Source: Chlorobaculum sp.
GTDB taxonomy: Bacteria > Bacteroidota > Chlorobiia > Chlorobiales > Chlorobiaceae
Assembly: GCA_013334855.1 (NCBI GenBank)
Contig: JAAXWU010000010.1
Coordinates: 1 to 36,541, forward strand
Direction: 5' to 3'
Length of the DNA: 36,541 bases
Positions 9,033 through 36,011 of this stretch are shown one piece after another. The notes beneath the pieces were generated by a model that saw only the letters and a list, made by a program, of their open reading frames with translations, searched no databases and was not told where the DNA came from. The stretch's first letter is position 1. Each line of letters opens with the position of its first letter. Position numbers and translations under genes: made by a program.

Positions 9033-10442
9033 TTATATCTCACTCGCAATTTGAGCTATAGTTAAGGTCAAGACGCTCTCCAAATAACTTCTTATATTTT
9101 TTTCTTTTGAATCAACATCCTTATCAATTGATATAACATGAGGTTTTATATCTAGCGGCAATACTGTATTGATTCGGTCTTCTGTATCTTTCACCTCAGA
9201 ATCAGCACTTAAATACTCCAAAAACGCCCCAATCGCGACTGTGTATTCGCCATACCCGTAATGATGTATCGTAACTCCTAATTGATATATTTTTTCTGTG
9301 GACAACTCGATCCTAAACGTTATCCATGCCTTAGGCATACCTCTGTTAAAATAGTAATTATGCTTGTTTGCGTATTTAATAATCTGCCCAAAATAAAAGT
9401 GTGATTTTGATGTATCATCAGGCCCACAAGGATGAACAAATATCTTCACATCACCATTCAATCTTTCTTTTAACGAAGCTGACGCTTCATTTAAATAAGA
9501 CTCACAATATTTAAATACTTTGTTTCTATTCTCATTCAATATGGCGACTTTTTCTGCTGACCTCCTTTCATGCCAAGAAGTAATTTTGCTAGAAAAGATA
9601 TTTGTCACCTCATCGAGTGAAGTGCTTGAAACATCTTTAATATTCAAGGCTTTTTCTATATTCCTTTTTTGAATCTCAATAAAATAATCTACCAATCCTT
9701 GTGGCTCTCCATTATCAGCACGCTCTAATGCATTTATATATTTTTCTTTTGCTTCTTCTCGTAGTACCGTGAATGGGAAAAATCCTTCTTTGATTAAAAT
9801 CAAGCTGGACAAAAGCCTGGCAACCCTGCCATTACCATCTTGAAAAGGATGGATTGTCGTAAACGCATGATGAAACCATGTAGCGTTAATAATTGGGTGT
9901 ATCTTATTCTGTACAGATTCATTATAGATATGAATCAAATTATCCATCTCGGAATCAACTTGCTCGGGAGGGCAATACATAATCACTGTTCCGTCATCTC
10001 TTGTAGGGTTATTTTCCCTTGTTTTGAATCTTCCACGAATCAAGCTGATTTTTGTTTTATTCCCGAATTGGTCACGACCTTCTGCGCATTCTTGATGTTG
10101 GGTAACAAGAGAATGTAGTTCTTTTATAAAACTTACTGTGAGTGACCTGTTTTGCTTTACAACATTAAAGACAAAATCAACCGCATCCAAATGATCTTTT
10201 AAATGACTTATTAACTTCGGAATCGGAATATCTGTATCTCCATGACTTATGTACGATTGTACGAAACCTTCATTAATAAAAGTTTCAGTAATCCCCTTTT
10301 TCAAATCGTACATTCGCTCGACTATTCCCGTCTCAATAGCGTGCTCTCTTTTTAATTTCGCGATAAACGCTTCATAGTCAGCAGAATTATCTTGAAGAAT
10401 CTTGCTTCGTTCAAACCATGAAGATGATATATCATCAATCAA
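9033..10442 (-). CDS. Fic-family protein (AMPylase-type), start disrupted by poly-A run
   Basis: At least 469 residues, with the complete Fic catalytic motif HPFQDGNGR (His198 in the form starting at 10442), which positions nucleotide and Mg for transfer of AMP or a related group to target hydroxyls. An upstream helix, HAIETGIVERMYDL, is a candidate for the self-inhibitory segment. The nearest listed start is a TTG with no Shine-Dalgarno. The frame stays open to 10517 and the extra 18 codons (YLWRHIEFSDSWEKCDTS) look like genuine family sequence. The upstream ATG at 10513 would fit, but a ten-A run (10497-10506) puts it out of frame by one base. The gene is markedly AT-richer than the core genes around it, which suggests transfer. 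The target is unknown. Confidence 0.85.
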   Translation of the reverse strand: MIDDISSSWFERSKILQDNSADYEAFIAKLKREHAIETGIVERMYDLKKGITETFINEGFVQSYISHGDTDIPIPKLISHLKDHLDAVDFVFNVVKQNRSLTVSFIKELHSLVTQHQECAEGRDQFGNKTKISLIRGRFKTRENNPTRDDGTVIMYCPPEQVDSEMDNLIHIYNESVQNKIHPIINATWFHHAFTTIHPFQDGNGRVARLLSSLILIKEGFFPFTVLREEAKEKYINALERADNGEPQGLVDYFIEIQKRNIEKALNIKDVSSTSLDEVTNIFSSKITSWHERRSAEKVAILNENRNKVFKYCESYLNEASASLKERLNGDVKIFVHPCGPDDTSKSHFYFGQIIKYANKHNYYFNRGMPKAWITFRIELSTEKIYQLGVTIHHYGYGEYTVAIGAFLEYLSADSEVKDTEDRINTVLPLDIKPHVISIDKDVDSKEKNIRSYLESVLTLTIAQIASEI

Positions 10443-10945: not shown

Positions 10946-11099
10946 TCCATGCCTCCATGAAGGATTCCTGTTGCTTTTCAATTATACCGCGAATCTCTTT
11001 CAATTCAAAGCGGCTGAAGCCAACGCTGTTCTGGTAACGGATCGGATCGAGCCAGAACTTTGCAAGCTTGTCGTCTCGCTCCACATGGATGTTATTTGT
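10926..11099 (-). pseudogene. DUF4160 gene fragment (C-terminal part only)
   Basis: The minus frame from 11090 to the TGA at 10926 reads IHVERDDKLAKFWLDPIRYQ, continues NSVGFSRFELKEIRGIIEKQ and ends with EAWNEYFGC. This is the second half of a DUF4160 protein, whose complete form starts about 30 residues earlier and reaches HIHVER through a PPH-type motif. Here the frame hits a stop (11100-11102) inside the end of recD and has no start codon. The N-terminal third is therefore missing, replaced by the recD 3' end. It overlaps the DUF2442 start by 20 bp, the usual arrangement for the intact pair. Confidence 0.7.
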
Positions 11100-12825
11100 T
11101 TACCAACTTTTCCCTCAAACCGCTTCTCCGCTCCGTTCGTCGCTTCACCGCAGCGCTGAAAATGGCATCGTCGCTCCACAACGTCACCGATTGCCTCGCT
11201 CTCGTGATCCCCGTATAAATCAGCTCCCTCGTCAGCAAAATAGTATCCTCCGGCGGCAAAACCATCAGCACCCTGTCGAACTCCGAACCCTGGCTTTTGT
11301 GCACCGTCATCGCGAACGCGGTTTCGTGCCTGGGCAGAAACTCCGGGGGGATGGCTCGGACGGTTCCGTCGGGGGCGGCGAAGAAGGCTCTCAGGTGGCC
11401 GGATTCCGGGTCGGGGAGTATGATGCCGGTGTCGCCGTTGAAGAGTTTGTGGATGTAGTCGTTTTCGGTGACGAGCACGGGGCGGCCTCGGTAGAACTGT
11501 GTGTCGAGGCGGATGAGCGCGGCTTCGTGGAGCAACGATTCGGCGGCGTGGTTCATGCCGGTGGCTCCCCACGGGCCTTCGCGCAGGGCGGTGAGGATGC
11601 GGAAGCGGTCGAAGCGGCGCAGCGCTTCGGCGGGCGTTCCGGCTTCGAGGTACGCGCGGAAGCCGTCGAGCACCGGAGCCTTGAGGCGCTTTTTCAGCGT
11701 TTCTCGCGTCGGGGTCGCTTCGAGCGCGATGGCGCTGCTGCCGGAGTCGGCGAGCAATCGGAGTGCTTCGCGGTCGCATCCAGCGTTCACGGCGCGGCTG
11801 AGGGCGGCGATGCCGGAGCCGTCGCCGAAGCGGTAGTTGCGGTCGAGCACGGTGACGCATCCGGCGATGGACGAGCCGGGCGATTCGGCGGCGCGGCAGA
11901 TGTCGCCGAGCACGGCTCCGGCTTCGACCGAGGCGAGCTGGTCGCGGTCGCCGATGAGGATGAGCCGGGCTTGCGGCGGGAGAGCCGTGACGAGGGCGGT
12001 CATGAGCGGCAGATCGACCATCGAGGCCTCGTCAACGATCACCGCGTCGCAGGGCAGCGGGGTGCGCTCATTGTGGCGGAAGCTGGTCGAGCCGGGCAGT
12101 GTGCCGAGCAGGCGGTGAATCGTCGTGACCTGGCCGGGCACGGCGCGTTTGACCTCGTCCGGGCACGGCAGCGTTTCCCGGAGCAAGGCGATGGACGCGG
12201 CGAGGCGGGCGGCGGCTTTGCCGGTGGGCGCGGCCAGGGCAATGCGCATCCGTTCACCACCGGTCTGTTCGAGCATGAGGCCGAGGATGCGCACGACGGT
12301 GGTGGTTTTGCCGGTGCCGGGACCGCCGGAGATGACCGAAAAGCGCCGCCGGAGCGCCGTCAGCGCGGCCTGTCGCTGGCGATCCTGTGCGTTTACGGGC
12401 GGAGCGAAGTAGCGGTCGAGCTGCCCGGCAAGCGCGGCTTCGTCGAGGCCACCGCCCTCCGATGCGGCGCGGGCGCGAATGGCGTCGGCCAGCAGCGCCT
12501 CGTAGCGGAAGTAGCGGTAGAGGTAGAGCCGTCCGGCGGCGTCGAGAATCAGCGGGCGGTGCTCCCCCGGCCTGCCGAGCGTTGGCAGCGAGCGGAGCGC
12601 CGCGAAGAGGCAGGCAGCGTCAGGCAGGCGCAACGATTCGTCGTTTCCGGCAGTCCGAACGAGCTGCCCGGCGATCTCCTCCAGATCGAGGCAGACGTGC
12701 CCCTGCCCCACCGCCTGGCTGAGCAGCGAAACGACCGTGCGCACCACGCCCGATTCATCCTTCGCGCCACGGCAAAGGAAAGCCGCCGCCTGCCGGTCAA
12801 TCGGCCGTTCGATGAAGTCGATCAT
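11092..12825 (-). CDS. recD: Exodeoxyribonuclease V alpha subunit RecD
   Basis: 577 residues, close to RecD of RecBCD and shorter than RecD2. An N-terminal domain of about 150 residues precedes a superfamily 1B helicase core. Visible motifs are Walker A GGPGTGKTTT (about 167-176), Walker B VDEASMVDLP, IGDRDQLASVEAGAVLGD, and, near the end, FAMTVHKSQGSEFDRVL and YTGITRARQSVTLW. RecD is the 5'-3' motor of the RecBCD complex that processes double-strand ends for recombination repair and degrades foreign linear DNA. It is the third gene of recC-recB-recD on this strand but lies about 330 bp from recB behind repeat DNA, so it may need its own promoter. Its final codons abut the truncated DUF4160 gene. 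Confidence 0.95.
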   Translation of the reverse strand: MIDFIERPIDRQAAAFLCRGAKDESGVVRTVVSLLSQAVGQGHVCLDLEEIAGQLVRTAGNDESLRLPDAACLFAALRSLPTLGRPGEHRPLILDAAGRLYLYRYFRYEALLADAIRARAASEGGGLDEAALAGQLDRYFAPPVNAQDRQRQAALTALRRRFSVISGGPGTGKTTTVVRILGLMLEQTGGERMRIALAAPTGKAAARLAASIALLRETLPCPDEVKRAVPGQVTTIHRLLGTLPGSTSFRHNERTPLPCDAVIVDEASMVDLPLMTALVTALPPQARLILIGDRDQLASVEAGAVLGDICRAAESPGSSIAGCVTVLDRNYRFGDGSGIAALSRAVNAGCDREALRLLADSGSSAIALEATPTRETLKKRLKAPVLDGFRAYLEAGTPAEALRRFDRFRILTALREGPWGATGMNHAAESLLHEAALIRLDTQFYRGRPVLVTENDYIHKLFNGDTGIILPDPESGHLRAFFAAPDGTVRAIPPEFLPRHETAFAMTVHKSQGSEFDRVLMVLPPEDTILLTRELIYTGITRARQSVTLWSDDAIFSAAVKRRTERRSGLREKLVNK

Positions 12826-13158
12826 GGGTTTCTCGAAAAATTTGTTCCGCGATCCGATTGCTGCCCAAACGATCCGCTGATGGCGGGTTGTCCCGAAAGC
12901 ATAATATTCTCCTTGAATAACGACGAATCGTCATCGCGAGTCCCGACCTGTCGGGACGTGGCGATCCATCTTTGCTGACTCCGCCGATTCTGTATCGATT
13001 GCCACGTCGGTGCGCTCTTTTCCATGAAAATCAATGGGTCCCTAAGAGGACGGCCACAAGAGCCGTCCCTACAAGAGAATGGAAGGTTTGTACCAGGATA
13101 ATCATGTTCGTGGCTTGTAATGACTGCACTTGCGCAAGACTTCTGGTTGAATTCCCAC
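12826..13158. repeat. recB-recD spacer with palindromic repeat elements
   Basis: A 333-bp spacer with no convincing gene. 12929-12966 reads CGTCATCGCGAGTCCC followed by a TCCCGACC/TCGGGA hairpin and ACGTGGCGATCC. A partner in opposite sense follows at 12997-13017 (GATTGCCACGTCGGTGCGCTC). This matches the widespread genomic repeat built on GTCATTGCGAG...GTGGCAATC. At 13048-13068, GGACGGC and GCCGTCC flank CACAAGA in a second hairpin type. Copies elsewhere in the genome are expected but cannot be checked here. Confidence 0.65.
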
Positions 13159-16100
13159 TCATCGTTCCCCCTCCTCTGTTCCGGTTTCGACAAGCAACTC
13201 GCCCAATTCGCGGATCAGCGCTTCCGGCGGGAGGTCGCGGTAGAGGCCGAACTCTTCGCCGCGTTCGGCGCTGACGCCGCGCAGAAAGACGTAGATCGCG
13301 CCGCCGAAGTGCGTGTCGTAGCGGTAGCCCGGTACGCGCAGCGCGAGGTAACGGTCGAGCGCCACGGTGTAGAGCAGGTATTGCAGCCGGTAGAGGTTCT
13401 CCTGCATCGCCCGGTCGAGCCGCTCGCGGCGGTACTCTTCGACCGAATTGCCGAGGTGGTTCGATTTCCAGTCGAGCAGCCAGAATCGCCCCTGCGCCTC
13501 GAATACCATGTCCATGAAACCCATCAGCATTCCCTTGACCGGCGCGAAGTCGAGCGCCTGCAATGCGGCGGCAGGATCTGTGCCGGACGGGATAACGCCA
13601 TGTTTCACAAGCACTTCAGCAAGCCGGGGCGAAGTAATGTGCCTGAGCGGGAAGAAAAACTCCAGCTCGGTGAACCACGTACGCGGCTTCAGGCCGCCGA
13701 GGGTGAACGGGCCGTCCGGCGATGAAAGCGGCGTCGAGAGCACCTGTCGAACCATGCTGGCAAGAGCGGGTTGCCACTCCTCGTCGAAACCGTACTTGCC
13801 GAGCGCCGTCGCGCAAGCCTCATCGATGGCACTGCCGGTCGCCGAGGCGAAGTCGAGCGTCTCGAAGATCGAGTGCATGAGAATACCCGCTCCGGCCCCT
13901 TTCGGGAAGGCGAAGATGCTTCGATCCCCGTCGGGCAGCGCGACCGGCGCAGCGGCGGGTTCCGGCAGGTTTTCGTCGCGATCTGGCAGCTCGAAGGTCA
14001 TGTGCTTGAGACGGCTGAGAGTGGTGAAACTCGCGACGCGCCAGTCGGTGTCGAGAGTCGCCTTGAACTCCCGGAGCACGAGCGGCGAGCGTTCGGTCGC
14101 GACGGGACGGACAACGGGCGTGCGGAGATCGTCACCAAGAGATAGGCGCTTGAGCTGAATCGCACCATCCGAAACTTCAGACAGCGCCTGAAGCTTGAGC
14201 GCCATCGCGGCGGCGGCGAGTCCCGAAAGCTCGCGCTGCGCCTCGCCGACCGGATGGGAACTCTGCCGGGCCTCATCCGAGGCGTAGAGCAGGTACGAGG
14301 CGGGCGTGAGTTGCGGCGTGCGACCGGAGCTGCGGCCATCGACGACGCGGGCGGTGAAGAAGATGCAGCGCCGTTCGGCCCTCGTCAGAGCGACATAGAA
14401 GAGGCGCAGGTTTTCGGCGAGCGTCTCGCGAGCGGCGGCAGTTCGATGCGCGTTGATCGTCCGCGACCCGAAATCCCTGACCATGCGGCCCCGCTCGTCG
14501 TGACAGAGCACCGCCTCGCCGTTGCCGTTGCCGCCGCCTAACTGGAAGGGGCAGAAGACCACCGGGTACTGCAACCCCTTGCTGACGTGCGCGGTGACGA
14601 TTTTGACCGCCGGTTCGTCGCTTTCGAGGCGAATCTGGTACTCCTCGCCAGGTTCCTGCGCCACGACCCGCTCGCTGAACCACGCCACAAGGCTCTCCAT
14701 GCCAAGCCCACGCGCATGCGCCTCGCGGTGCAGCAGCTCGAAGCAGTGCAGCAGGTTGGTCAGCGCCCGCTCGCCGGATGATCCTGCCAGAGCCAGCAGC
14801 CGCTCGCGCACGGCCTCGCGGCGCATCAGCTCGCGGGCCATCACCATGAAGCCGCGCTCCTGCCAGAGCCGGTGATACTCCCGGAACTCTTGCAACCGTG
14901 CGGCCCAGCCGTTTTCGTCGGCGTTCAGTCGTGCAATGTCGCTGCCGTTCAGCCCGAAGAGCGGCGTCACCAGCGCGGCGCGGACGAGCGGCTCGCGCCC
15001 CGGATCGGCGAGCGCCGTGACGAGGATGCGCACCTCCTCGGCTTCGATGGAGGCAAACACGCTCTCGTCGCTGCGCATCACCGAGACGATACCCGACTTG
15101 CGAAGCGCCGCATGCATCATGCGGGCCTGCCGGTGAGTTCTCACGATGATGGCGATGCCGCCCGCCGCAGTGCCGCCGCTGATCGTTTCGGCCACCATCG
15201 AGGCGCACGCCTCCGCCGCGAAACTCGCAGCGTCGCCGCTCTTCAGGCTGCCGTCGCCGTCGCTCGCTTCGAGCAGGCAGATTTCGAGCGGCGGTTCGAT
15301 GGATGCCGTTCCATCAGTATCAGAGCGGCCCGCCACGAGCGGTGGCGAGGGGATGTCGTCGATGATGAAGGGCTGGCGAGCCTCTTCGAAAAGGCGATTG
15401 AAGCCGTCGAGCAGCTTAGGCGTCGAGCGCCAGTTCGCGTTGAGCGTAAAGCGCCGCTCCTGGCCAACGTCACTCGCCGCTTGCAGATAGGCGAAAATAT
15501 CCGCTCCACGGAAGCTGTAGATCGCCTGTTTGGGATCGCCGATGAGAAAGAGCGGCGCGTCCGACCCGGCGTAGATGCGCCGGAAGATGTCGTACTGCAC
15601 CGGATCGGTGTCCTGAAACTCGTCGATCAGCGCCGCCTTGTAGCGATTGCGGAGCGCTTCGGCAAGCGCGGCGGCTTCAGAGCCGTCCGCGAGCGAGTGG
15701 TAGAGATCGGCAAGCAGATCGTCGAAAAAGCGGATGTTCCCCTCTTTCTTGCGCTCCGGCAAGCGGTTGCGGTAAAACGTAACAAGCTCGGATTTGAGCG
15801 CAAGCAAGCGCTCATCCGCAAACGATTGCAAGCGTTCGCAAGCGTCGAAAAACGGATGCGAGGGCGGAGTGCCGGAGTTTTTCGTGCCGACTGCGATACC
15901 GGATGTTGACATCTTCTCGAAGCCATCGAAAAGACCGAAGGGATTACCGCCCGCCACGAACGCTTCCATCGATTCGAGCAGCGACCCGACTTTATCATCA
16001 CGATACCATTTCTCAGACCGGCTCAGCGCCTTGCTCGTCCGTAAAAGCTCTGAAAGCGCCTCGCGCTCCTCATGCCAGATGCGACAAATCTCGTCAAACG

Positions 16101-16758
16101 CCGCTTGCGCCTCATCCTCGATGCGGGCGACCTCAGCTTCTCCATAAGCGGGAATTACTTCGTCACGCTCAGAAAGCTGTAACGAGTTCAGGAAGTTTTT
16201 GAGCGCATCCGGTGACCATTTTTTCAGCAAAGCGTAATCGAGCAGCCGGTTGGCGTCGCCGAAAAAGCGCTCCCGCCAAAAGTCGTCGATCACCTGCCCT
16301 GCAAGCGCCGACTGGTCAGTCACGAGTTCGGTATCGTACAGCGCTCCGCTCTCGAAGGCGTGATCCTGCAACGCCCGCAGGCAGAAGCCGTGGATCGTGA
16401 AGATCGAGGCCATATCGAACTCCGCCAGCGCGGCTTCGAGCAGCACGGCGGCGTGTTCCGTCGCTCCGGCTTCTGCTGTTCTTTCGAGAAGTTTGACGAG
16501 GAACTCGTCCTCGGTCTCCTCGCCACGCATGACGTCAAGCGCTTCACGAATACGTCGGCGTATTCGCGAGCGAAGCTCCTGCGTGGCCGCTTCGGTGAAG
16601 GTGACGACGAGAATCTCTTCGGGGCGGAGTTCCTTTTCGACGAGCAGCCGCAGATAGAGCGATGCAATAGCCCAGGTCTTGCCCGTGCCCGCGCTCGCCT
16701 CGATGAGGTTCATGCCCGAGAGCGGCACGGCGATGTGGTCGAGGATGCGGATGGTCAT
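13159..16758 (-). CDS. recB: Exodeoxyribonuclease V beta subunit RecB
   Basis: 1199 residues from the ATG at 16758 (MTIRILDHIAVPLSGMN), where RecB homology starts. An upstream TTG in the same frame adds only Pro-rich residues. It has a UvrD-type superfamily 1A helicase: Walker A EASAGTGKTW at residues 20-29, VVTFTEAATQELRSRI, LIDEFQDTDPVQYDIF, IGDPKQAIYSFRGAD and LFYVALTRAE. The C-terminal nuclease domain has GFMDMVFEAQGRFWLLDWKSN, with the Asp and DxK residues of the RecB nuclease family. As the 3'-5' motor and the only nuclease of RecBCD, it resects broken ends and loads RecA. No Shine-Dalgarno is visible. The spacer before it holds a palindromic element of about 180 bp. Confidence 0.96.
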   Translation of the reverse strand: MTIRILDHIAVPLSGMNLIEASAGTGKTWAIASLYLRLLVEKELRPEEILVVTFTEAATQELRSRIRRRIREALDVMRGEETEDEFLVKLLERTAEAGATEHAAVLLEAALAEFDMASIFTIHGFCLRALQDHAFESGALYDTELVTDQSALAGQVIDDFWRERFFGDANRLLDYALLKKWSPDALKNFLNSLQLSERDEVIPAYGEAEVARIEDEAQAAFDEICRIWHEEREALSELLRTSKALSRSEKWYRDDKVGSLLESMEAFVAGGNPFGLFDGFEKMSTSGIAVGTKNSGTPPSHPFFDACERLQSFADERLLALKSELVTFYRNRLPERKKEGNIRFFDDLLADLYHSLADGSEAAALAEALRNRYKAALIDEFQDTDPVQYDIFRRIYAGSDAPLFLIGDPKQAIYSFRGADIFAYLQAASDVGQERRFTLNANWRSTPKLLDGFNRLFEEARQPFIIDDIPSPPLVAGRSDTDGTASIEPPLEICLLEASDGDGSLKSGDAASFAAEACASMVAETISGGTAAGGIAIIVRTHRQARMMHAALRKSGIVSVMRSDESVFASIEAEEVRILVTALADPGREPLVRAALVTPLFGLNGSDIARLNADENGWAARLQEFREYHRLWQERGFMVMARELMRREAVRERLLALAGSSGERALTNLLHCFELLHREAHARGLGMESLVAWFSERVVAQEPGEEYQIRLESDEPAVKIVTAHVSKGLQYPVVFCPFQLGGGNGNGEAVLCHDERGRMVRDFGSRTINAHRTAAARETLAENLRLFYVALTRAERRCIFFTARVVDGRSSGRTPQLTPASYLLYASDEARQSSHPVGEAQRELSGLAAAAMALKLQALSEVSDGAIQLKRLSLGDDLRTPVVRPVATERSPLVLREFKATLDTDWRVASFTTLSRLKHMTFELPDRDENLPEPAAAPVALPDGDRSIFAFPKGAGAGILMHSIFETLDFASATGSAIDEACATALGKYGFDEEWQPALASMVRQVLSTPLSSPDGPFTLGGLKPRTWFTELEFFFPLRHITSPRLAEVLVKHGVIPSGTDPAAALQALDFAPVKGMLMGFMDMVFEAQGRFWLLDWKSNHLGNSVEEYRRERLDRAMQENLYRLQYLLYTVALDRYLALRVPGYRYDTHFGGAIYVFLRGVSAERGEEFGLYRDLPPEALIRELGELLVETGTEEGER

Positions 16759-16800
16759 GGGCGGCGCGTCGGGAGGTGGCGGGAGTGCCAACAGTGATCG

Positions 16801-16977
16801 TTGCCCCGACCTTCAAGCCGGGGATCAGGAATACCACATAAGAAACCGGGCTTTAGCCCAATCGTTTTCAAGACATTGATGGCGACGAATTGCGTCCGAA
16901 GTAATGACAGAAGAAATTGGGCTAAAGCCCTGATTTTTATATTTGCTGCCCTATCCCCGGACTGAAGTCCGGGGCAA
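16801..16977. repeat. MITE-like nested inverted-repeat element between recC and recB
   Basis: The outer ends TTGCCCCGACCTTCAAGCCG (from 16801) and, reversed, TTGCCCCGGACTTCAGTCCG (ending 16977) match at 19 of 23 positions over the full arms. Each end also folds into its own hairpin. An inner pair, AAACCGGGCTTTAGCCCAAT (16843-16862) and the reverse complement of 16916-16935, matches at 18 of 20. The central 50 bp is unique and non-coding. No clear target-site duplication was seen. The whole resembles a REP doublet or a miniature inverted-repeat element. Confidence 0.75.
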
Positions 16978-17065
16978 TTGAACGGCAACGCATCGAATGA
17001 AAAAGCAGGCTGCTTAAACAAAATGTCAGCTCGAAAGTTCCGCCATAAAAGATATTGTCGTGCAC

Positions 17066-20000
17066 TCATCCTTTCCCTCCGTGCTCGATCATCGGTTGCA
17101 GTAACGATTCGGCGATGGCGGCGAAACGCTCGCCGAAAGGCGGCTTCTCGCCGAAGCAGCGGCGAATGGCCGGGTCGCTCCCCTCGCCTTCGCGCCCACC
17201 GAAGCCGTCGAGCCATTCGCCCAACGCGGCTTTGCGCCGCTCCTCCTCCGACTTCCCAGCCTTTTCGGCCCAGGCGAGCGACGAGCGCGGGAACAGAGGC
17301 AGCGGCTCCGAAAGCCCTTCGCGATAGAGATCGAGCAGCGCTTCGAGCCGTTCCGATGCGTCTTCGACGGGGCGGTAGCGGATCGAGCGGTCGAGCGTGA
17401 CGATCAGCGTGTCGCTCGATGCGCCTTCTTCGACGGCGTGGTGCGCCAGATGCAGCAGCCACGAGCGGAGCCGATCCTGCGCCCGCATCCTGGCGCAACG
17501 GTACAGAAGCTGCCCCTCCGGCAGCAGATGGTCGAGCTGACCGGTGATGCGGAATCCGCCGATGTCGAGATCGAAGTCGAGCTGGCCGAACGCGCCGCTC
17601 CCCTTCAACTCCCGCACCTTCGCGGCGAACTGTTCGACCTCGGCGAGCAACTGCCGGAAAAGCAGCTCGCCATGCGTCGCCGGAGGCAGGAGGCCACGTG
17701 ACCGGAAGAGCGGCAGCATCGCGCCTCCGTCGCCACCATCGAGCAGCGCTTCGAGCAGCTCCTGACGCATTGCGTAGCGTTCGAGTCCGACGGCTTCGAA
17801 AGGCTCGCGCTCTTCGAGCGGTTCCGTCGCGGCTGAGGGTTTCAGGCCGAGCCGACGTTCGAGGAAATACGCCGCCGGATTGGCGAAAAAACGGGCGAGA
17901 TCGTCGAGCGTCACCGTCCGCTCCTCATCGGCGAAGTCGTCCAGCGGCGACTCGATGAAGGGGCGCTCCGTGACCGAATCGCGCCGTTCAAGCGCTTGAA
18001 AGTTGTCCGTCGAGTAGCTGAAAAAACGGGAATCTGGCGTGAAATAGGCCGGATTGAAGCTTTGCAGCTTGTGTCTGACCGTCAGGCTCGACGCAGCATC
18101 TTGGCCATCGGGGAACTCGAAGCCCCGGTCAAGGGCGTCGAGCAGTTCGCTCACCAGCACGGAGGGCGGCAGTTCACTGTTGTCGCGGACGCTCTGGCCG
18201 ACGTAGCTGAGATAGAGCACGTCGCGGGCCGAGAGAATCGATTCGAGGAAGAGGTAGCGGTCGTCGCCGCGCACCGAGCGGTCGCCTTTGCGCGGCTCGC
18301 GAAACATCATGTCGAAGCCCGGCGGGCGCTGCTGGCGCGGGAACTTGCCGTCGTTCATGCCGATCATCGCCACCACGCGGAACGGAATGCTGCGCATCGG
18401 CAGCATCGCGCAGAAAGTAATGCCGCCGGTCATGAAGCCGAGGCCCATTTCCGCTTTTTCGAGCTTCTCGCGCATCCAGGCGATCATCACCGAAGCCGAC
18501 ACCTCGCCCTCGAAGCGGGAGTGTTTGGCAAGTGACGTAATCTTGTCAATCTCCGACTTGACATGCACCAGCTCGCGTGCGGACTCCTCGTCAGCCTCGA
18601 TGAAGAGATCGAGCATCCAGAGGAACAGTTCGCGCCACCCGTCGAGCGTACGGGGGCGGTCGAATTTCGACGACAGCGCATCGACCGCATCGACGAAGTC
18701 CGCCAGCTTGCCAAGCGTTTCGGCGTCGCCCTCGACATCGAAAGGCTGCACGCCGTCGAACAGTCGCCCCTCGTCTGGCATGGCGTAACCAAGCAGCAAG
18801 CGCCCCAGACCGGCCCGCCACGAGTTTTCGCGGAAGGGCGGCAAGCCGAGGCTGCTGCGCGACCGCTCGTCCATGCCCCAGCGGATGCGCGTCTCCGAAA
18901 TCCAGCGCCGGATCGCGTCGAGCGCCTCGCCATCGAGCCGGAAGCGGCGGCTCACCGGCGGCGACGAGAGCAGGTCGAAGAGCGCGGGCGCGGTCAGTCG
19001 GCTGCCGTGCAGCTCCAGCAGCTTGAGCATGGCGGGCGCAATGCCACCCTCATCGAGCATCCGGCGGTCAGCAATGGAGTGCGGCAAGCGCGGCGCGCCA
19101 TCCCCGGCAGCGCCGAACACCGTGGCGATATAGGGCGCGTAGGTTTCGATCTCAGGCGTCATTACCACGATGTCGCGCGGATCGAGGCCTGGCAACCGTT
19201 CCAGCAGATCGAGCAGATTGTCGCGAAGCACCTCTACCTCGCGCAGCGGATTGTGACACGAATGCACCTGCACCGAGCAGTCGTCCGCGTCGGGTGCTGG
19301 ATGCTTCCCATCATCACCGTCGCCGCGCAGATTGAGCATATCGGACTGCAAGGCGCGAAGCAGCGTATCAGTGCCGGGGTCGTCATACAGGTCATACTCG
19401 TCCTCGACCTCGCCCACGTCGAGCAGCAGTTCGGCGAACTCGCGACCGCTTTTGCCGAGCGAGGCGAGCAGCGGATTACCCTCGGTGCTCAGCGCCCGCT
19501 CGCTCTCGCTCATGCGGAAAAGCCGCCGCCGGGAGACGATGTCCGTCCAGTACTCCTGCGTCGGACTCAGGAGGAACAGGTTCACCGGAATCCGTGCGGC
19601 CAGCGCCTGGAGCATCTCGACGTGATATGGCGGCATGTAAGAGACGCCAAAGAGCGAAATACCCGTCGGGAAATCCGGTGGCAGCGTCGCTTTTTTTATC
19701 TTCTGGATGAACTCCGCCCTGAGTTGACCGCGATGCTTCCCCAAACTCTCCGCGACCAGTGCCCGCCACAGCTCCGGCTGCCAGTCGCGAGCGCCGTCAT
19801 CCCGCCCCGCCTCCCAAGCGGCGAGCAGGTCGGAGCGAAAAAGCGTGTACTGATCGAAGGTATCGGCGATCCGGTCGCAAAGCTGGAAGAGCTTCAGGCC
19901 GTCACGGTCGCCATCGAGGTAGCCTCGCAGCGGCGCGAACGATGCGCGGTCGAGCAGCTCCGGCAGAAGGCGCATGAGGCTCCAGCTCATCGTCTCCTTC

Positions 20001-20263
20001 GAAAAGCTCTCGCCATCCGCATTGTCCGACAGCTCCAGCCACTCGAAAAGCTTTTGCAGCAGCGCGTTCGGAAAAGGATACTCCGCCCCTGCCCAGACGC
20101 CGAACCGTGCGGCAAGCCGCATCGACAGCCACCGCTGCATCCCCCGGCTCTGCACGACGATCCACTCCTTCACGAAGGGCGAATCAAGCGGCCTCGTGGA
20201 TACCGTTTCGCCAAACGCCAAAACCAGCTCCTCCAGCCGGTTGCCCGTGTACATCTCAAGCAT
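17066..20263 (-). CDS. recC: Exodeoxyribonuclease V gamma subunit RecC
   Basis: 1065 residues, near the usual RecC length. The N-terminus MLEMYTGNRLEELVLAF, followed by VVQSRGMQRWLSMRLA, is diagnostic for RecC. Further support comes from LFLLSPTQEYWTDI, FLIQ-region-like SCHNPLREVEVLRDNLLDLL, VMTPEIETYAPYI and, later, FRVVAMIGMNDGKFPRQQRPPGFDMM and GDRSVRGDDRYLFLESILSA. RecC has an inactive helicase-nuclease fold. It scaffolds RecB and RecD, splits the DNA strands and, in E. coli, recognises Chi. It is the first gene of the recC-recB-recD series and ends 307 bp before recB. Confidence 0.95.
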   Translation of the reverse strand: MLEMYTGNRLEELVLAFGETVSTRPLDSPFVKEWIVVQSRGMQRWLSMRLAARFGVWAGAEYPFPNALLQKLFEWLELSDNADGESFSKETMSWSLMRLLPELLDRASFAPLRGYLDGDRDGLKLFQLCDRIADTFDQYTLFRSDLLAAWEAGRDDGARDWQPELWRALVAESLGKHRGQLRAEFIQKIKKATLPPDFPTGISLFGVSYMPPYHVEMLQALAARIPVNLFLLSPTQEYWTDIVSRRRLFRMSESERALSTEGNPLLASLGKSGREFAELLLDVGEVEDEYDLYDDPGTDTLLRALQSDMLNLRGDGDDGKHPAPDADDCSVQVHSCHNPLREVEVLRDNLLDLLERLPGLDPRDIVVMTPEIETYAPYIATVFGAAGDGAPRLPHSIADRRMLDEGGIAPAMLKLLELHGSRLTAPALFDLLSSPPVSRRFRLDGEALDAIRRWISETRIRWGMDERSRSSLGLPPFRENSWRAGLGRLLLGYAMPDEGRLFDGVQPFDVEGDAETLGKLADFVDAVDALSSKFDRPRTLDGWRELFLWMLDLFIEADEESARELVHVKSEIDKITSLAKHSRFEGEVSASVMIAWMREKLEKAEMGLGFMTGGITFCAMLPMRSIPFRVVAMIGMNDGKFPRQQRPPGFDMMFREPRKGDRSVRGDDRYLFLESILSARDVLYLSYVGQSVRDNSELPPSVLVSELLDALDRGFEFPDGQDAASSLTVRHKLQSFNPAYFTPDSRFFSYSTDNFQALERRDSVTERPFIESPLDDFADEERTVTLDDLARFFANPAAYFLERRLGLKPSAATEPLEEREPFEAVGLERYAMRQELLEALLDGGDGGAMLPLFRSRGLLPPATHGELLFRQLLAEVEQFAAKVRELKGSGAFGQLDFDLDIGGFRITGQLDHLLPEGQLLYRCARMRAQDRLRSWLLHLAHHAVEEGASSDTLIVTLDRSIRYRPVEDASERLEALLDLYREGLSEPLPLFPRSSLAWAEKAGKSEEERRKAALGEWLDGFGGREGEGSDPAIRRCFGEKPPFGERFAAIAESLLQPMIEHGGKG

Positions 20264-32010: not shown

Positions 32011-32104
32011 TTACCCATCATCGCGGAGCTTGTCGAGCTGGTCGCGGAATTGCTTTTGCAGGTCGGCGACGGATTCGTTCTCCGTGTGGTAGTGGTTGTT
32101 GGGT
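32011..32104 (-). other. Coding-like tail one frame off after the Roco gene
   Basis: Directly after the Roco stop, a different minus frame reads TGFGSRPNNHYHTENESVAD then LQKQFRDQLDKLRDDG and stops at 32011. It has no start codon and overlaps the last codons of the Roco gene. The charged, helical composition (coiled-coil-like) looks like a real C-terminus. Either the Roco gene once extended here and frameshifted, or it is the remnant of another gene. The rest of the 250-bp spacer up to pepD holds nothing recognisable. Confidence 0.4.
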
Positions 32105-34672
32105 CTACTGCCGAATCCGGTAAGCGTCAAGAATCAGCTTCGCAATCTCCTCAGCGGATCGCTCTTTTAGCTTGATGCCAAAACCGACGGCGGGCCAGCC
32201 GGGAATTTTCGTGTCGTCGAGATGCACCGGAATCACAGCATCATCCTTGTGACGGTTGAGCAAAATGCCCCGGATTGTAGTCCACTCCATGTTGCACCAC
32301 GGCTTGGTGTAGTATTTGGAGAAGAACGGGACGACGAGTTCCACCTGATTGTAGCACTCCTGAAGCTTGAGGTCGCCACCGCTGCCGAGCAGGTGAGCTT
32401 CGTACCATTCGTCGTAAAACACGCGATCTTTTCCAAACTCCTTCGCAAGAAGCTCGACGATTTCAAGGACAAACGCCCGATGCTCGCCAGGAAAAGAGAC
32501 CGCGATGGCGAAGCGTTTGCCATTTGTTTCCGGCTCACGCGCCCATTCCGGCAACTGATGGATGCTGATTCCGTCGAGCAGCTCAAGCACATTGACATCT
32601 GCGTAATCGGGCGGTTTGGGACACTCGATTGTCCGTTTGCCTCTGTGTTTGCGTTCGATCAACTCTTTCTGGTCAAACTTTGCCGGTTCTTCCAGTCCGC
32701 GACAGGTTTTACAGATGCAGGGCACCCATTTACTGACTCTGTTTTTGAGACCCTCGAAGCTGTCGTTCAGGGCGTCGAGATCGCTGGCGATGACGCTCAG
32801 GAGCGCTTTGTGTTCCGGGCCTCGGCTGCGGAGCGTGATTTCGTTGCCTCGCGTGGCTGTCTCCACGAGCACCTGCGTGCCGTCGTGCTCGAAGAGCGCT
32901 CCGTATGACCAGCAGAGATCGGGCTGTTTGACGAAACGGTGCATACGCACGATCAGGCGGCTTACGAGACCCCTCGGCAGAAATTCGTAGCGGTAAGTCA
33001 GCACCAGATCGCCCGGTTTCGACCAGTCAGCCAGCTCCGGCGGCTTGGATGGCGAGAGGTGTTGCGGCACCAGCCAGGTATCCTCGCTGGCGTCAGGAAC
33101 TTTGTAGGCCAGCTCGAAGCGCACCATCAGCGCTCGCAGCTCTATCTCCTTGTCTGCATAGCCTTTGTCGGCCCACAGGCGGTCGCAGTCGGCGAGCGTG
33201 AAGCGCCCCCGCCGGGCTTTCACCTGCTCGTCGTCAAGGATGCGGAACACGGCGTCCGTTACCCACTTGTTCTGCAGGAATACCGTTCGCCGAAGCTCGC
33301 GTGGTTGCTGGAAGTGCAGGAACACGCCAAGATCATGCAGATACTGGCTCAGGTGCAGCGCCTTGTCGCGGTCGAGCTGGAGATGATGCCCGTACACTTC
33401 GAAATAGTCGTCGAGCGAAATGTATGGCCGCGACTGCGCCAACTCCTCAAGCTCCATGCGGATCGGCACCCACCTGGCGGGCACATCTTCGCCGATATGC
33501 GGCAGGTTCTGGGCGAAATACTCCACCGCTTTGCGAATGCCGTCCGCCGCATCGGGTTGTTCGAGGTTGCCCCGGTAGAACTCTTTCACGTTGGGAAATC
33601 GCCCCTTGATGCCAGCTTCATCGATCTGCTTGCTTCGTCCGCCTTTTTCGTTCTGAAAGATCAAGAGCGGGCACGCTTCGCTGAGCGTTTCGACCACTTC
33701 GAGCCAGAACTTGAAGCTCTCGTTATGGATCGACTTGCTGTCGGTGCGCGTGTCGTCAACCAGCACGTAGAGGGAGCGCTTTGTCAGGAAGAACTGATGC
33801 GTGGCGTGGTAGATTTGCTGCCCGCCGAAGTCCCAGGCGTTGAGCCGGAAGGTGCGTCCGTCATCGATTGAAAACTCATGCCGATAAATATCGATGCCGC
33901 GAGTAGTTTGGTCTTCCGCAGGCAACTCCATACCAGGCATGAACATACGCCGAAGCAAACTCGTTTTCCCAGCCCCGCCCTCGCCGACAATCAACAACTT
34001 CGCCTCGAACAGCCGATCCGTGCCCTGCTCCTCGATTTCTCGGAAGTAGTTCAGTACCGCTTCGGGGCCTTGCTGGGCGATTTCTACTGGAGGAATAGAT
34101 AGCGGGCAGGCTTCAACATAGATGCCCGGACCGTTCCACCATTTGTCAGGCCATTTGACAGGCAAGCCAGACAGAATCATCGATTTCAGAGGCGACAGAT
34201 CCGAGACTTCTGAGTTTGCAATATTGAGCGTAGAAAGCTTTTCGAGATGCTCCGAGATGAATCGTAAACCAGCATCACCAATCTGGTTGTGGCTCAAATC
34301 GAGTGAAGTGAGTTGACCGAGATGCTCTGCGATGGCTTGTGCACCAGCATCGCCAATCTGATTAAGGCTCAAATCGAGTGAAGTGAGTTGACCGAGATGC
34401 TCCGCGAGAGCAAGTACATCTTTGTCTCTTAGCTCAACTGACATAAGAATTAGGGTTTGCAATTGCTCAAATTGCAACAGTTCGTGCGGTAACTCGGATA
34501 GCTTATCAGTCAATTGAAACACGTTATTGGCATGGAATCCTTGAGGTATAGCAGTAAGCCATGCATCTGGACCGAGCACTGCCAAATATGTCGTTTTTTC
34601 GACATCGAGTTGACTGAGTACTTTCGGCAGCTCTTCCGGGGTGACTCGCTGAATTCTCGGTTCGTTGTTCAT
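32105..34672 (-). CDS. Roco GTPase with LRR, Roc-COR and C-terminal TIR domain
   Basis: 855 residues. Three or four leucine-rich repeats occupy about 80-165 (SLDLSLNQIGDAG and SLDLSHNQIGDAG). The Roc G domain follows, with Walker A GEGGAGKTSLL at 230-240, the DFGGQQ switch at 281-286 and QNEKGG near the G4 position. A COR region runs to about 600, then a Cys pair segment (CICKTC). The TIR domain spans about 719-855 (FAIAVSFPGEHRAF, VFYDEWYEAHLLGSG, VPFFSKYYTKPWCNMEW); Glu796 is in the WCxxE position used by TIR NAD-cleaving enzymes. Roco proteins were first structurally studied from Chlorobaculum, but this one is shorter in LRRs and has a TIR end. A defence role is inference. The initial ATG has no clear Shine-Dalgarno. 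Confidence 0.9.
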   Translation of the reverse strand: MNNEPRIQRVTPEELPKVLSQLDVEKTTYLAVLGPDAWLTAIPQGFHANNVFQLTDKLSELPHELLQFEQLQTLILMSVELRDKDVLALAEHLGQLTSLDLSLNQIGDAGAQAIAEHLGQLTSLDLSHNQIGDAGLRFISEHLEKLSTLNIANSEVSDLSPLKSMILSGLPVKWPDKWWNGPGIYVEACPLSIPPVEIAQQGPEAVLNYFREIEEQGTDRLFEAKLLIVGEGGAGKTSLLRRMFMPGMELPAEDQTTRGIDIYRHEFSIDDGRTFRLNAWDFGGQQIYHATHQFFLTKRSLYVLVDDTRTDSKSIHNESFKFWLEVVETLSEACPLLIFQNEKGGRSKQIDEAGIKGRFPNVKEFYRGNLEQPDAADGIRKAVEYFAQNLPHIGEDVPARWVPIRMELEELAQSRPYISLDDYFEVYGHHLQLDRDKALHLSQYLHDLGVFLHFQQPRELRRTVFLQNKWVTDAVFRILDDEQVKARRGRFTLADCDRLWADKGYADKEIELRALMVRFELAYKVPDASEDTWLVPQHLSPSKPPELADWSKPGDLVLTYRYEFLPRGLVSRLIVRMHRFVKQPDLCWSYGALFEHDGTQVLVETATRGNEITLRSRGPEHKALLSVIASDLDALNDSFEGLKNRVSKWVPCICKTCRGLEEPAKFDQKELIERKHRGKRTIECPKPPDYADVNVLELLDGISIHQLPEWAREPETNGKRFAIAVSFPGEHRAFVLEIVELLAKEFGKDRVFYDEWYEAHLLGSGGDLKLQECYNQVELVVPFFSKYYTKPWCNMEWTTIRGILLNRHKDDAVIPVHLDDTKIPGWPAVGFGIKLKERSAEEIAKLILDAYRIRQ
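34271..34420 (-). repeat. Two 75-bp tandem copies within the Roco LRR
   Basis: 34271-34345 and 34346-34420 are near-identical at the DNA level across their first 55 bp. They encode successive 25-residue LRR units (AEHLGQLTSLDLSLNQIGDA and AEHLGQLTSLDLSHNQIGDA). The high nucleotide identity suggests recent duplication. Confidence 0.8.
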
Positions 34673-34846: not shown

Positions 34847-35061
34847 TCACCCCGCGGCGAGCCTGATGCCAATCAGCGCGAGCAGCATGGCGGTTCCGGC
34901 GAGGTAGATGCGGCGGATGTAGCGGAGCTTCGGCAGCGTCCGGTGGTCGAGCAGCCGCCAGACTGACCAGGCGACGACGGCGTCGAAGGCGATGATCGGA
35001 GGCAGGTACGGCCAGCCGAACCATCCGGCGACGAAAGGCACGGCGCTTCCCGCGATCAGTT
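34847..35061 (-). pseudogene. UbiA-like membrane prenyltransferase, C-terminal fragment
   Basis: About 70 residues at the end of a minus frame read PFVAGWFGWPYLPPIIAFDA, then VVAWSVWRLLDHRTLPKLRY and TAMLLALIGIRLAAG. Two hydrophobic helices around a basic loop and the AGWFGWPYL block resemble the end of UbiA-family prenyltransferases (GGGP-transferase type), recognised from memory. The N-terminal three quarters are gone and replaced by transposase sequence, so the gene is dead. Confidence 0.55.
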
Positions 35062-35436
35062 TCGTTCCTTGGTCAGTTTTGATATGATTTTTGTATCCGA
35101 AAAAATTGACTTCGTTTTTTTGAGCCATCTCGCATCGGTGTCTTTTTGACGGATCTTGCGCGGCTTGGATTACCATTCTTCAGGAATATGGCCCTGTTTG
35201 ATTTGTGTGTTTTCCTCCCGGCTGTTTCGCTGACGAGGTACTTCGACGATACTGGCATCGACAATCTGTCCGTTTCCGGCAAAGAGGCACTGGTCATCCA
35301 TCGCTTGGTAAAAACGGTAAAACAGAGTATCGATAACTTCTTCTTTAACAAGCGTTTCCCCGAAATTCCAGACGGCTTTACTATCCGGCACCTTATCACT
35401 TGAATGTAATCCGAGAAAGCGTACTTTATTTTTCAA
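35062..35436 (-). mobile_element. Degenerate IS5-family transposase remnant
   Basis: From 35436 leftward the minus frame reads RFLGLHSSDKVPDSKAVWNF, followed by QIVDASIVEVPRQRNSREEN, typical of the IS5 (IS1182-like) transposase region with its first catalytic Asp. It is interrupted by TAA at 35170, continues in that frame as RQKDTDARW, and then shifts frame in an A run to give NEVNFFGYKNHIKTD before ending at the UbiA-like fragment. Both the N-terminus and the C-terminal catalytic part are absent. No inverted ends were found. Confidence 0.7.
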
Positions 35437-35763: not shown

Positions 35764-36011
35764 TCAAATGCCCGGATAGTTCGACTCGCGCCACTTCCCC
35801 ACCTCCGACCGGACGAGATTGACCAGAAGATCGCGGTACTCGCCAGTCAGATCGTTGATCTCGAATACAGCACGTTGCGCTCCCTGTCGGGCGTGAAAAT
35901 GCGCCTGCCGTGGCGTATATCGCCGTAATCGAGCGATCCATCATGCGAAGTGGCGTAATGCAACTGCGGCGCTTCGTACGGAGAGTTCAGAATCGGATTC
36001 ATGTCGCTCAT
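35764..36011 (-). pseudogene. Restriction-helicase (type III-like) N-terminal remnant
   Basis: From the ATG at 36011 the minus frame reads [20 protein letters not shown] then [20 protein letters not shown]. After a one-base shift near 35900 the next frame gives [20 protein letters not shown] and SEVGKWRESNYPGI, and stops at 35764. Both halves resemble the start of long DEAD/DEAH restriction subunits ([17 protein letters not shown], later GEYRDLLVNLVR), recognised from memory. The segment that should join them is missing and the helicase motifs are absent, so this is a broken, internally deleted fragment. Confidence 0.6.

What the first reader, a model, noticed from the sequence alone, without database searches (positions are those of the whole stretch)
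32105..34672. Roco-TIR protein: a possible NAD-cleaving defence GTPase
The protein joins a sensor-like LRR, a Roc-COR GTPase and a C-terminal TIR domain with Glu at the WCxxE position. This parallels NLR-type immune receptors and TIR NADases of prokaryotes. It sits beside broken restriction and IS genes, i.e. in a plausible defence hotspot. The combination is known for some Roco proteins, but its function in green sulfur bacteria is, as far as I know, undescribed.
Basis: partly seen in the sequence, partly recalled or inferred. Interest (0 to 1): 0.65.

Follow-up and report, generated by a model that had tools for sequence, protein, structure and literature searches.

The report
Bacterial LRR-GTPase-TIR receptor with exchanged effector
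A green sulfur bacterium carries an intact LRR-GTPase protein ending in a TIR domain that probably destroys NAD to stop infection, and just behind the gene lie the last 28 codons of a different NADase-type effector, showing that the killing part of such receptors is exchanged like a cassette.

Summary
In detail: ORF 32105-34672(-) is an intact 855-aa LRR-Roc-COR protein with a C-terminal TIR, and Glu796 of the WCxxE motif is invariant in all seven relatives that carry this TIR. The general kind (LRR + Roc-COR + variable C-terminal effector, TIR included) was catalogued from sequence in 2021 (PMC8195603). I found no experimental test of it, so NADase activity and defence remain inferred. What is new lies beside the gene. 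Right after the TIR stop, 32014-32095(-) encodes the last 28 residues of a DUF4062-like effector (93% DNA identity to the effector of a congener). Most receptors of this subfamily carry that effector, and DUF4062 was recently shown to be a TIR-like NADase family (PMC13174449). In Thiosymbion (purple sulfur bacteria), two sister receptor genes at one locus share core, displaced DUF4062 remnant and flank but carry different effectors: an in-place swap. The receptor tree rejects a single TIR-bearing clade (p-AU 0.0001). The window's site (pepD-argH) is a hot spot with different contents in congeners. Whether the window itself arose by an effector swap or by replacement of the whole resident gene is not settled.

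The parts
32105..34672 (-). LRR-Roc-COR-TIR gene, 855 aa, intact
   Evidence: orthologues L107-L110
34178..34477 (-). LRR region, about 3 repeats of a 25-aa ribonuclease-inhibitor-like unit (75-bp tandem repeat at 34243-34407); relatives have about 7-15
33503..34003 (-). Roc GTPase domain (residues 224-390): P-loop GEGGAGKTS, DFGGQ; subfamily-specific NEK in place of the canonical NKxD
32570..33481 (-). COR-A and COR-B (residues 398-701)
32621..32719 (-). putative zinc site CxCxxC..C (C652, C654, C657, C684), invariant in 37 receptors, just before the effector junction
32560..32572 (-). core/effector junction (about residue 702): DNA similarity to the congener receptor ends here
32108..32518 (-). 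TIR domain (residues 719-855)
32285..32287 (-). Glu796, putative catalytic residue of WCxxE
32014..32095 (-). remnant: last 28 residues of a DUF4062-like effector (HYHTENESVADLQKQFRDQLDKLRDDG), out of frame with the TIR, directly behind its stop codon
30393..31853 (-). pepD-type M20 peptidase, conserved left border of the variable site
34850..35032 (-). C-terminal fragment of a UbiA-type prenyltransferase
35170..35436 (-). IS5-family transposase fragment (continues, frame-shifted, to about 35040)
35898..35999 (-). N-terminal fragment of a BPTD_3080-type restriction endonuclease

Best explanation
The gene encodes a single-protein, NLR-like immune switch. The fast-changing LRR senses an invader cue (inferred). 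Nucleotide binding by Roc-COR changes the oligomeric state or conformation (shown for the C. tepidum homologue, inferred here). That brings C-terminal TIR domains into an active arrangement which cleaves NAD+ through Glu796 and stops growth of the infected cell (inferred). The effector slot behind COR-B is exchangeable (shown by sequence comparison). In this subfamily the usual occupant is a DUF4062-like domain, itself of a TIR-like NADase family. At the window's site a resident gene ending in that domain was overwritten by the TIR version, leaving its last 28 codons as a scar (shown). Confidence by step: exchange of the effector slot within the family 0.93; window scar derived from a resident DUF4062-ended gene 0.9; TIR is an NADase 0.75; role in anti-phage defence 0.65.
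For: Domain architecture and intact gene. Glu796 and W792 invariant in 7 TIR homologues down to 34% identity. The TIR model resembles TIR structures, including plant RUN1 and bacterial SPARTA and TIR-STING; the TIR profile's weak best PDB sequence matches are the plant NLR TIRs RPS4 and SNC1, aligned through WCxxE. The LRR count varies from 3 to 15 within one clade. A different effector sits on a 78%-identical Roc-COR in congener G017, next to the same genes. The remnant is 92.7% DNA-identical to that effector, the level of a core gene (argH 91.1%). TIR-bearing L107 and DUF4062-bearing L113, sisters by core (99/99), share the core (89.7% DNA), a displaced DUF4062 remnant (91.4%) and the downstream flank (83%) but not the effector. 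TIR carriers as one clade are rejected, p-AU 1.3e-4. Effector-like sequence behind the stop in 9 of 97 loci, all sense, against 1 of 86 in front, that one being a broken Roc-COR frame. Effector members match PF13271 DUF4062 in 26 of 28, and DUF4062 proteins are NADases, one of them an antiphage protein (PMC13174449). Patchy distribution: COR-A in 15 of 98 genomes of the order; the pepD-argH site has empty and differently filled states.
Against: No enzymatic or phage data. The TIR model is of moderate confidence (mean pLDDT 72.6, only 7 sequences), its fold matches are modest and also include non-enzymatic TLR and MyD88 TIRs. No characterised defence gene lies beside it and PADLOC does not recognise it. 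DUF4062 matches are below Pfam's curated cut-off for individual members. GTP drives the C. tepidum Roco protein towards monomers (PMC11052575), whereas TIR NADases usually need to assemble, so the coupling is unclear. The remnant in the window is short (82 bp). The hot spot's other half lies on another contig.
Confidence: 0.68

Rival explanations
1. The TIR is a non-enzymatic scaffold (as in MyD88 or TLRs) and the protein signals by protein-protein contact, as a regulator rather than a cell-killing defence protein.
For: Top fold matches include TRAM, MAL, TLR10 and MyD88 TIRs. No partner or defence gene is clearly co-encoded in the window.
Against: Glu796 and the preceding Trp are invariant across divergent homologues, and there is no second gene for the TIR to recruit. 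The alternative occupants of the same slot are DUF4062-like (an NADase family), other TIRs and other predicted effectors.
Confidence: 0.2
2. A metabolic or developmental Roco protein of green sulfur bacteria, as usually assumed for CtRoco, not concerned with defence.
For: The physiological role of CtRoco-type proteins is unknown; a CtRoco-like paralogue exists in the same genome.
Against: Patchy presence (15 of 98 genomes with any COR-A), orthologues in unrelated phyla, variable LRR number, exchange of the C-terminal domain and a hot-spot location are all unlike a housekeeping gene.
Confidence: 0.1
3. In the window the whole Roco-TIR gene arrived from outside and replaced a resident DUF4062-ended gene (Roco-DUF4062 as in G017, or nSTAND3/Mrr + DUF4062 as in G001), recombining in the shared effector tail; it was not an effector-only swap.
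For: The remnant is 93% identical to G017 while the receptor core is only 73% identical in DNA. Core and TIR diverge together from Thiosymbion L109 in one unbroken alignment (75.7%). G001 carries a different receptor gene in front of the same DUF4062 tail at the same site.
Against: The core tree puts the window with G017 (83/87, not decisive), which would fit an effector-only swap with a fast-evolving core.
Confidence: 0.5
4. The downstream DUF4062 piece is an independent companion gene or a chance match, not a displaced effector.
For: DUF4062-like domains also occur as stand-alone or unfused ORFs in these genomes; in L128 and L159 an intact second gene with a TIR follows the receptor.
Against: All four pieces (window, L107, L109, L113) lack the N-terminal strand and keep the C-terminal end, so they are not functional genes; they are sense-oriented, directly behind the stop, and E is as low as 1e-82.
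Confidence: 0.07

Closest known systems
Prokaryotic AP-GTPase (Roc)-COR conflict proteins, Burroughs/Aravind 2021 (PMC8195603)
   Same: LRR + Roc + COR with a variable C-terminal effector, TIR explicitly listed; several paralogues with different effectors in one genome (three here)
   Different: That work is a catalogue of architectures; it predicts function and, in the section read, does not describe displaced effector remnants or a DUF4062-to-TIR exchange at one locus
Chlorobaculum tepidum Roco protein (CtRoco; PDB 3dpu, 6hlu, 8r4b)
   Same: LRR-Roc-COR core, E 1.9e-57
   Different: Its C-terminus is not a TIR; G4 motif NKID instead of NEK; a different subfamily (about 27% identity for the CtRoco-like L021)
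Swarozyc and other DUF4062 TIR-like NADases (PMC13174449)
   Same: The displaced effector belongs to the DUF4062/NPHP3-like group
   Different: Swarozyc as described is a DUF4062 protein activated by phage portal, with no LRR-Roc-COR; the window retains only 28 residues of the domain
Bacterial TIR NADase defence proteins (Thoeris, SPARTA, SpbK, TIR-STING)
   Same: TIR with WCxxE Glu, predicted NAD+ cleavage
   Different: Different sensor and switch; no Thoeris or other PADLOC model matches
CdiA-CT/Rhs orphan toxin modules (PMC6336857)
   Same: New C-terminal effector inserted, older effector displaced 3-prime and decaying
   Different: Those are secreted toxins with immunity genes; here it is an intracellular receptor without an immunity gene

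Membership tests
Roco proteins | Roc GTPase followed by COR (COR-A and COR-B) | tested here: met
   Pfam Roc 4.5e-21, COR-A 7e-35, COR-B 7e-28, all over cut-off
Roco proteins | GTP binding and hydrolysis | not testable with these tools
   P-loop and DFGGQ present; the G4 motif is NEK, not NKxD, conserved in the subfamily, so nucleotide preference should be measured
Prokaryotic AP-GTPase-COR conflict systems | rapidly evolving N-terminal LRR | tested here: met
   3 to 15 repeats in one clade
Prokaryotic AP-GTPase-COR conflict systems | variable C-terminal effector on a conserved core | tested here: met
Prokaryotic AP-GTPase-COR conflict systems | several paralogues with different effectors in one genome | tested here: met
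   three COR-A genes in G000 with different C-termini
Prokaryotic AP-GTPase-COR conflict systems | protects against invaders | not testable with these tools
   no experiment; I found no published test in the library
TIR NADases | TIR fold | tested here: met
   TIR_2 over cut-off; moderate-confidence model matches TIR structures with TM 0.55-0.65
TIR NADases | catalytic Glu of the WCxxE motif | tested here: met
   Glu796 invariant in 7 of 7
TIR NADases | NAD+ cleavage | not testable with these tools
   needs purified protein
Known TIR defence systems in PADLOC (Thoeris etc.) | match to a PADLOC model | tested here: not met
   no PADLOC match for the protein
DUF4062 effectors (displaced piece) | similarity to PF13271 | tested here: met
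   26 of 28 full-length relatives match at E up to 0.5, best 1.3e-4, NPHP3 21 of 28; member 1 is below the curated cut-off. Group level only, the window piece is too short on its own

The most novel reading that the evidence does not exclude
LRR-Roc-COR immune receptors diversify by C-terminal cassette exchange that leaves displaced, decaying effectors 3-prime of the gene, as in polymorphic toxins. The leftover tail serves as the homology anchor for the next exchange, and exchange often trades one NADase fold (DUF4062) for another (TIR), keeping the reaction while changing the enzyme, for example to escape phage inhibitors.
Probability: 0.35. Interest if true: 0.75.

Novelty: new member of a known kind. 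Interest (0 to 1): 0.57.

Why it matters
Bacterial Roco proteins are the structural models for LRRK2, yet, as far as I could find, no bacterial Roco has a tested physiological role. A full-length LRR-Roc-COR-TIR with a ready active-site mutant (Glu796) makes the immune-receptor idea directly testable, and gives an enzymatic read-out (NAD loss) for the Roc-COR switch. The displaced effector tails give direct sequence evidence of how such receptors change their effector, parallel to CdiA/Rhs toxins.

Tried and rejected
TIR donor: no close relative of this TIR in the order (best 35%), in plasmids (35%) or in viral contigs, so the donor is unknown. Phage and viral carriage: no receptor in phage records except LRR-only matches in Wolbachia phages; one distant relative in a viral contig (L187). 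Profile comparison of TIR against DUF4062-like effector was not significant, so I rest the kinship of the two on Pfam matches and the DUF4062 paper. No solved structure matched the single TIR or the effector profile by sequence. L123 and L185 downstream hits were set aside as an assembly gap and a broken reading frame, L163 as an internal repeat, L128 and L159 as an intact two-gene variant. I considered an own-genome TIR as donor: G000 has 18 TIR_2 matches, but the query TIR finds only itself there. The full-length model (mean pLDDT 78.6) has a poorly placed TIR, so no claim on domain contacts is made.

Full report
Observation. The window is the whole of contig C180 of a 2.55-Mb, 233-contig assembly (88% complete). 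The ORF at 32105-34672 on the minus strand is intact. Pfam finds LRR_6, Roc, COR-A, COR-B and TIR_2, all above their cut-offs, and the LRR-Roc-COR part matches the C. tepidum Roco protein at E 1.9e-57. The WCxxE motif is WCNME with Glu at 796.

Relatives. A search of 98 genomes of the order found the closest receptor in a congener, G017 (74% over residues 88-713), but that protein ends in another domain. A scan of 85,000 species genomes gave 80 relatives. Four, all Chromatiaceae (two Thiosymbion symbionts, Chromatiaceae ppb02, Lamprocystis purpurea), carry the same TIR; their Roc-COR is 71-80% identical. Most others in the subfamily with more than 50% core identity carry a domain beginning IFLASSxELREDRDAFDLYFRQQNDRL. 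Its members match Pfam DUF4062 (26 of 28) and the Nephrocystin-3 domain (21 of 28). DUF4062 is reported as a TIR-like NADase family, with a bacterial antiphage member activated by phage portal and an active human member, TEP1 (PMC13174449). The subfamily therefore carries mostly domains of two related NADase-type families in one slot.

The scar. Directly behind the TIR stop codon, on the same strand and out of frame, window 32014-32095 encodes 28 residues that are the C-terminus of the DUF4062-like effector (82% protein identity). DNA identity to G017's effector is 92.7%, to G001's 87.7% and to Thiosymbion's 73-79%; a core gene, argH, is 91% identical between G000 and G017. So the piece is local and inherited with the genome, whereas the receptor core is only 73% identical in DNA to G017's. 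Thiosymbion L109 and L107 have longer pieces of the old effector (89 and 72 residues) behind the same TIR, and L113 has 138-140 residues of an older DUF4062 domain behind a newer one. L107 and L113 are sisters by core (99/99) and lie at one locus: the core (89.7%), the displaced piece (91.4%) and the downstream flank (83%) align, the effectors do not. That is an effector exchange in place. A single clade of TIR carriers is rejected by the core tree (p-AU 1.3e-4). Across 97 loci, effector-like sequence lies behind the stop in nine, all sense; in front of the gene one of 86 has a hit, a broken Roc-COR frame. Of the nine I count four as displaced remnants; the others have other causes.

The site. 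In congeners the block cyclase-pepD ... argH-ctp-fba is conserved. Between pepD and argH, G019 and G004 have about 0.4-0.5 kb and no large gene; G015 has an IS3-type insertion; G005, G008 and G020 have an FAD oxidoreductase (GGR) and further genes; G001 has GGR, a DUF4062 domain and an Mrr-nSTAND3 protein; G017 has GGR and Roco-DUF4062. The window has the DUF4062 tail, Roco-TIR, and fragments of a prenyltransferase, an IS5 element and a restriction enzyme. In this genome argH is on contig C217 with a large CHAT-like/TPR-like protein beside it (domain call by eye). This is a variable, defence-like site. That it is one site in G000 too is inferred, because the assembly breaks there.

Mechanism. 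LRR repeat number varies from 3 (window) to 15 among close relatives, which fits a fast-evolving sensor. For the C. tepidum homologue, GTP binding drives dimer-to-monomer change and large rearrangement (PMC11052575). How that couples to a TIR, which usually works in assemblies, is open. Four cysteines (652, 654, 657, 684) and the segment up to residue 701 are conserved in 37 receptors, and the effector joins immediately after; this looks like the output hinge. The conserved NEK in place of NKxD means nucleotide preference cannot be assumed. The TIR model is of moderate confidence and matches TIR structures, including NAD-cleaving plant and bacterial ones and non-enzymatic animal ones. NAD cleavage is thus inferred from fold, the invariant Glu and the kind of domain it alternates with.

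Known and new. The architecture is a catalogued, predicted counter-invader kind (PMC8195603); in the held library I found no experimental test of a bacterial Roco in defence. The new parts are the displaced effector remnants, the DUF4062-TIR alternation at one junction, and the sharing of this receptor between green and purple sulfur bacteria. Displaced 3-prime remnants are known for CdiA and Rhs toxins (PMC6336857). Whether tails act as recombination anchors is a hypothesis. Whether the window's event was an effector swap or a whole-gene replacement is unresolved: the core tree weakly groups it with G017 (83/87), the DNA identities favour replacement.

Noticed in passing
G000 genome; family survey: This genome has 18 TIR_2 matches, among the highest of 86 genomes of its family (G001 has 19, G057 18; many have 0-4).
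   Followed up: partly
L066 8309-11104 (G001); L089 (G002): An Mrr-nSTAND3 protein is followed, in another frame and within about 15 bp of its stop, by a DUF4062-like domain 92% identical to the Roco effector of G017; the same arrangement is seen in a second genome.
   Followed up: partly
L128 and L159, behind the receptor ORF: In Methylococcaceae a new small C-terminal domain plus a second overlapping gene ending in the TIR replaces the fused TIR of a sister receptor (L138): the effector moved to a separate gene.
   Followed up: partly
window 33640-33660 region (residues 340-348): The G4 motif of Roc reads QNEKGGRSK throughout the subfamily instead of NKxD; nucleotide specificity may differ.
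   Followed up: no
L107, about 60-160 bp behind the TIR stop: A palindromic GTAGGCTGGGTT...AACCCAGCCTAC-like element (MITE-like, by eye) lies between the TIR stop and the old-effector remnant.
   Followed up: no
window 9033-10442 and 11092-20263: A Fic/DOC protein, and recD, recB and recC genes on the minus strand, about 12 kb from the receptor; RecBCD is a phage target, but no link was tested.
   Followed up: no
L013-L018, L020, L022, L024, L033, L034, L036: Other Roco proteins of green sulfur bacteria end in at least three further TIR-like types, so Roco-TIR arose several times in this group.
   Followed up: partly
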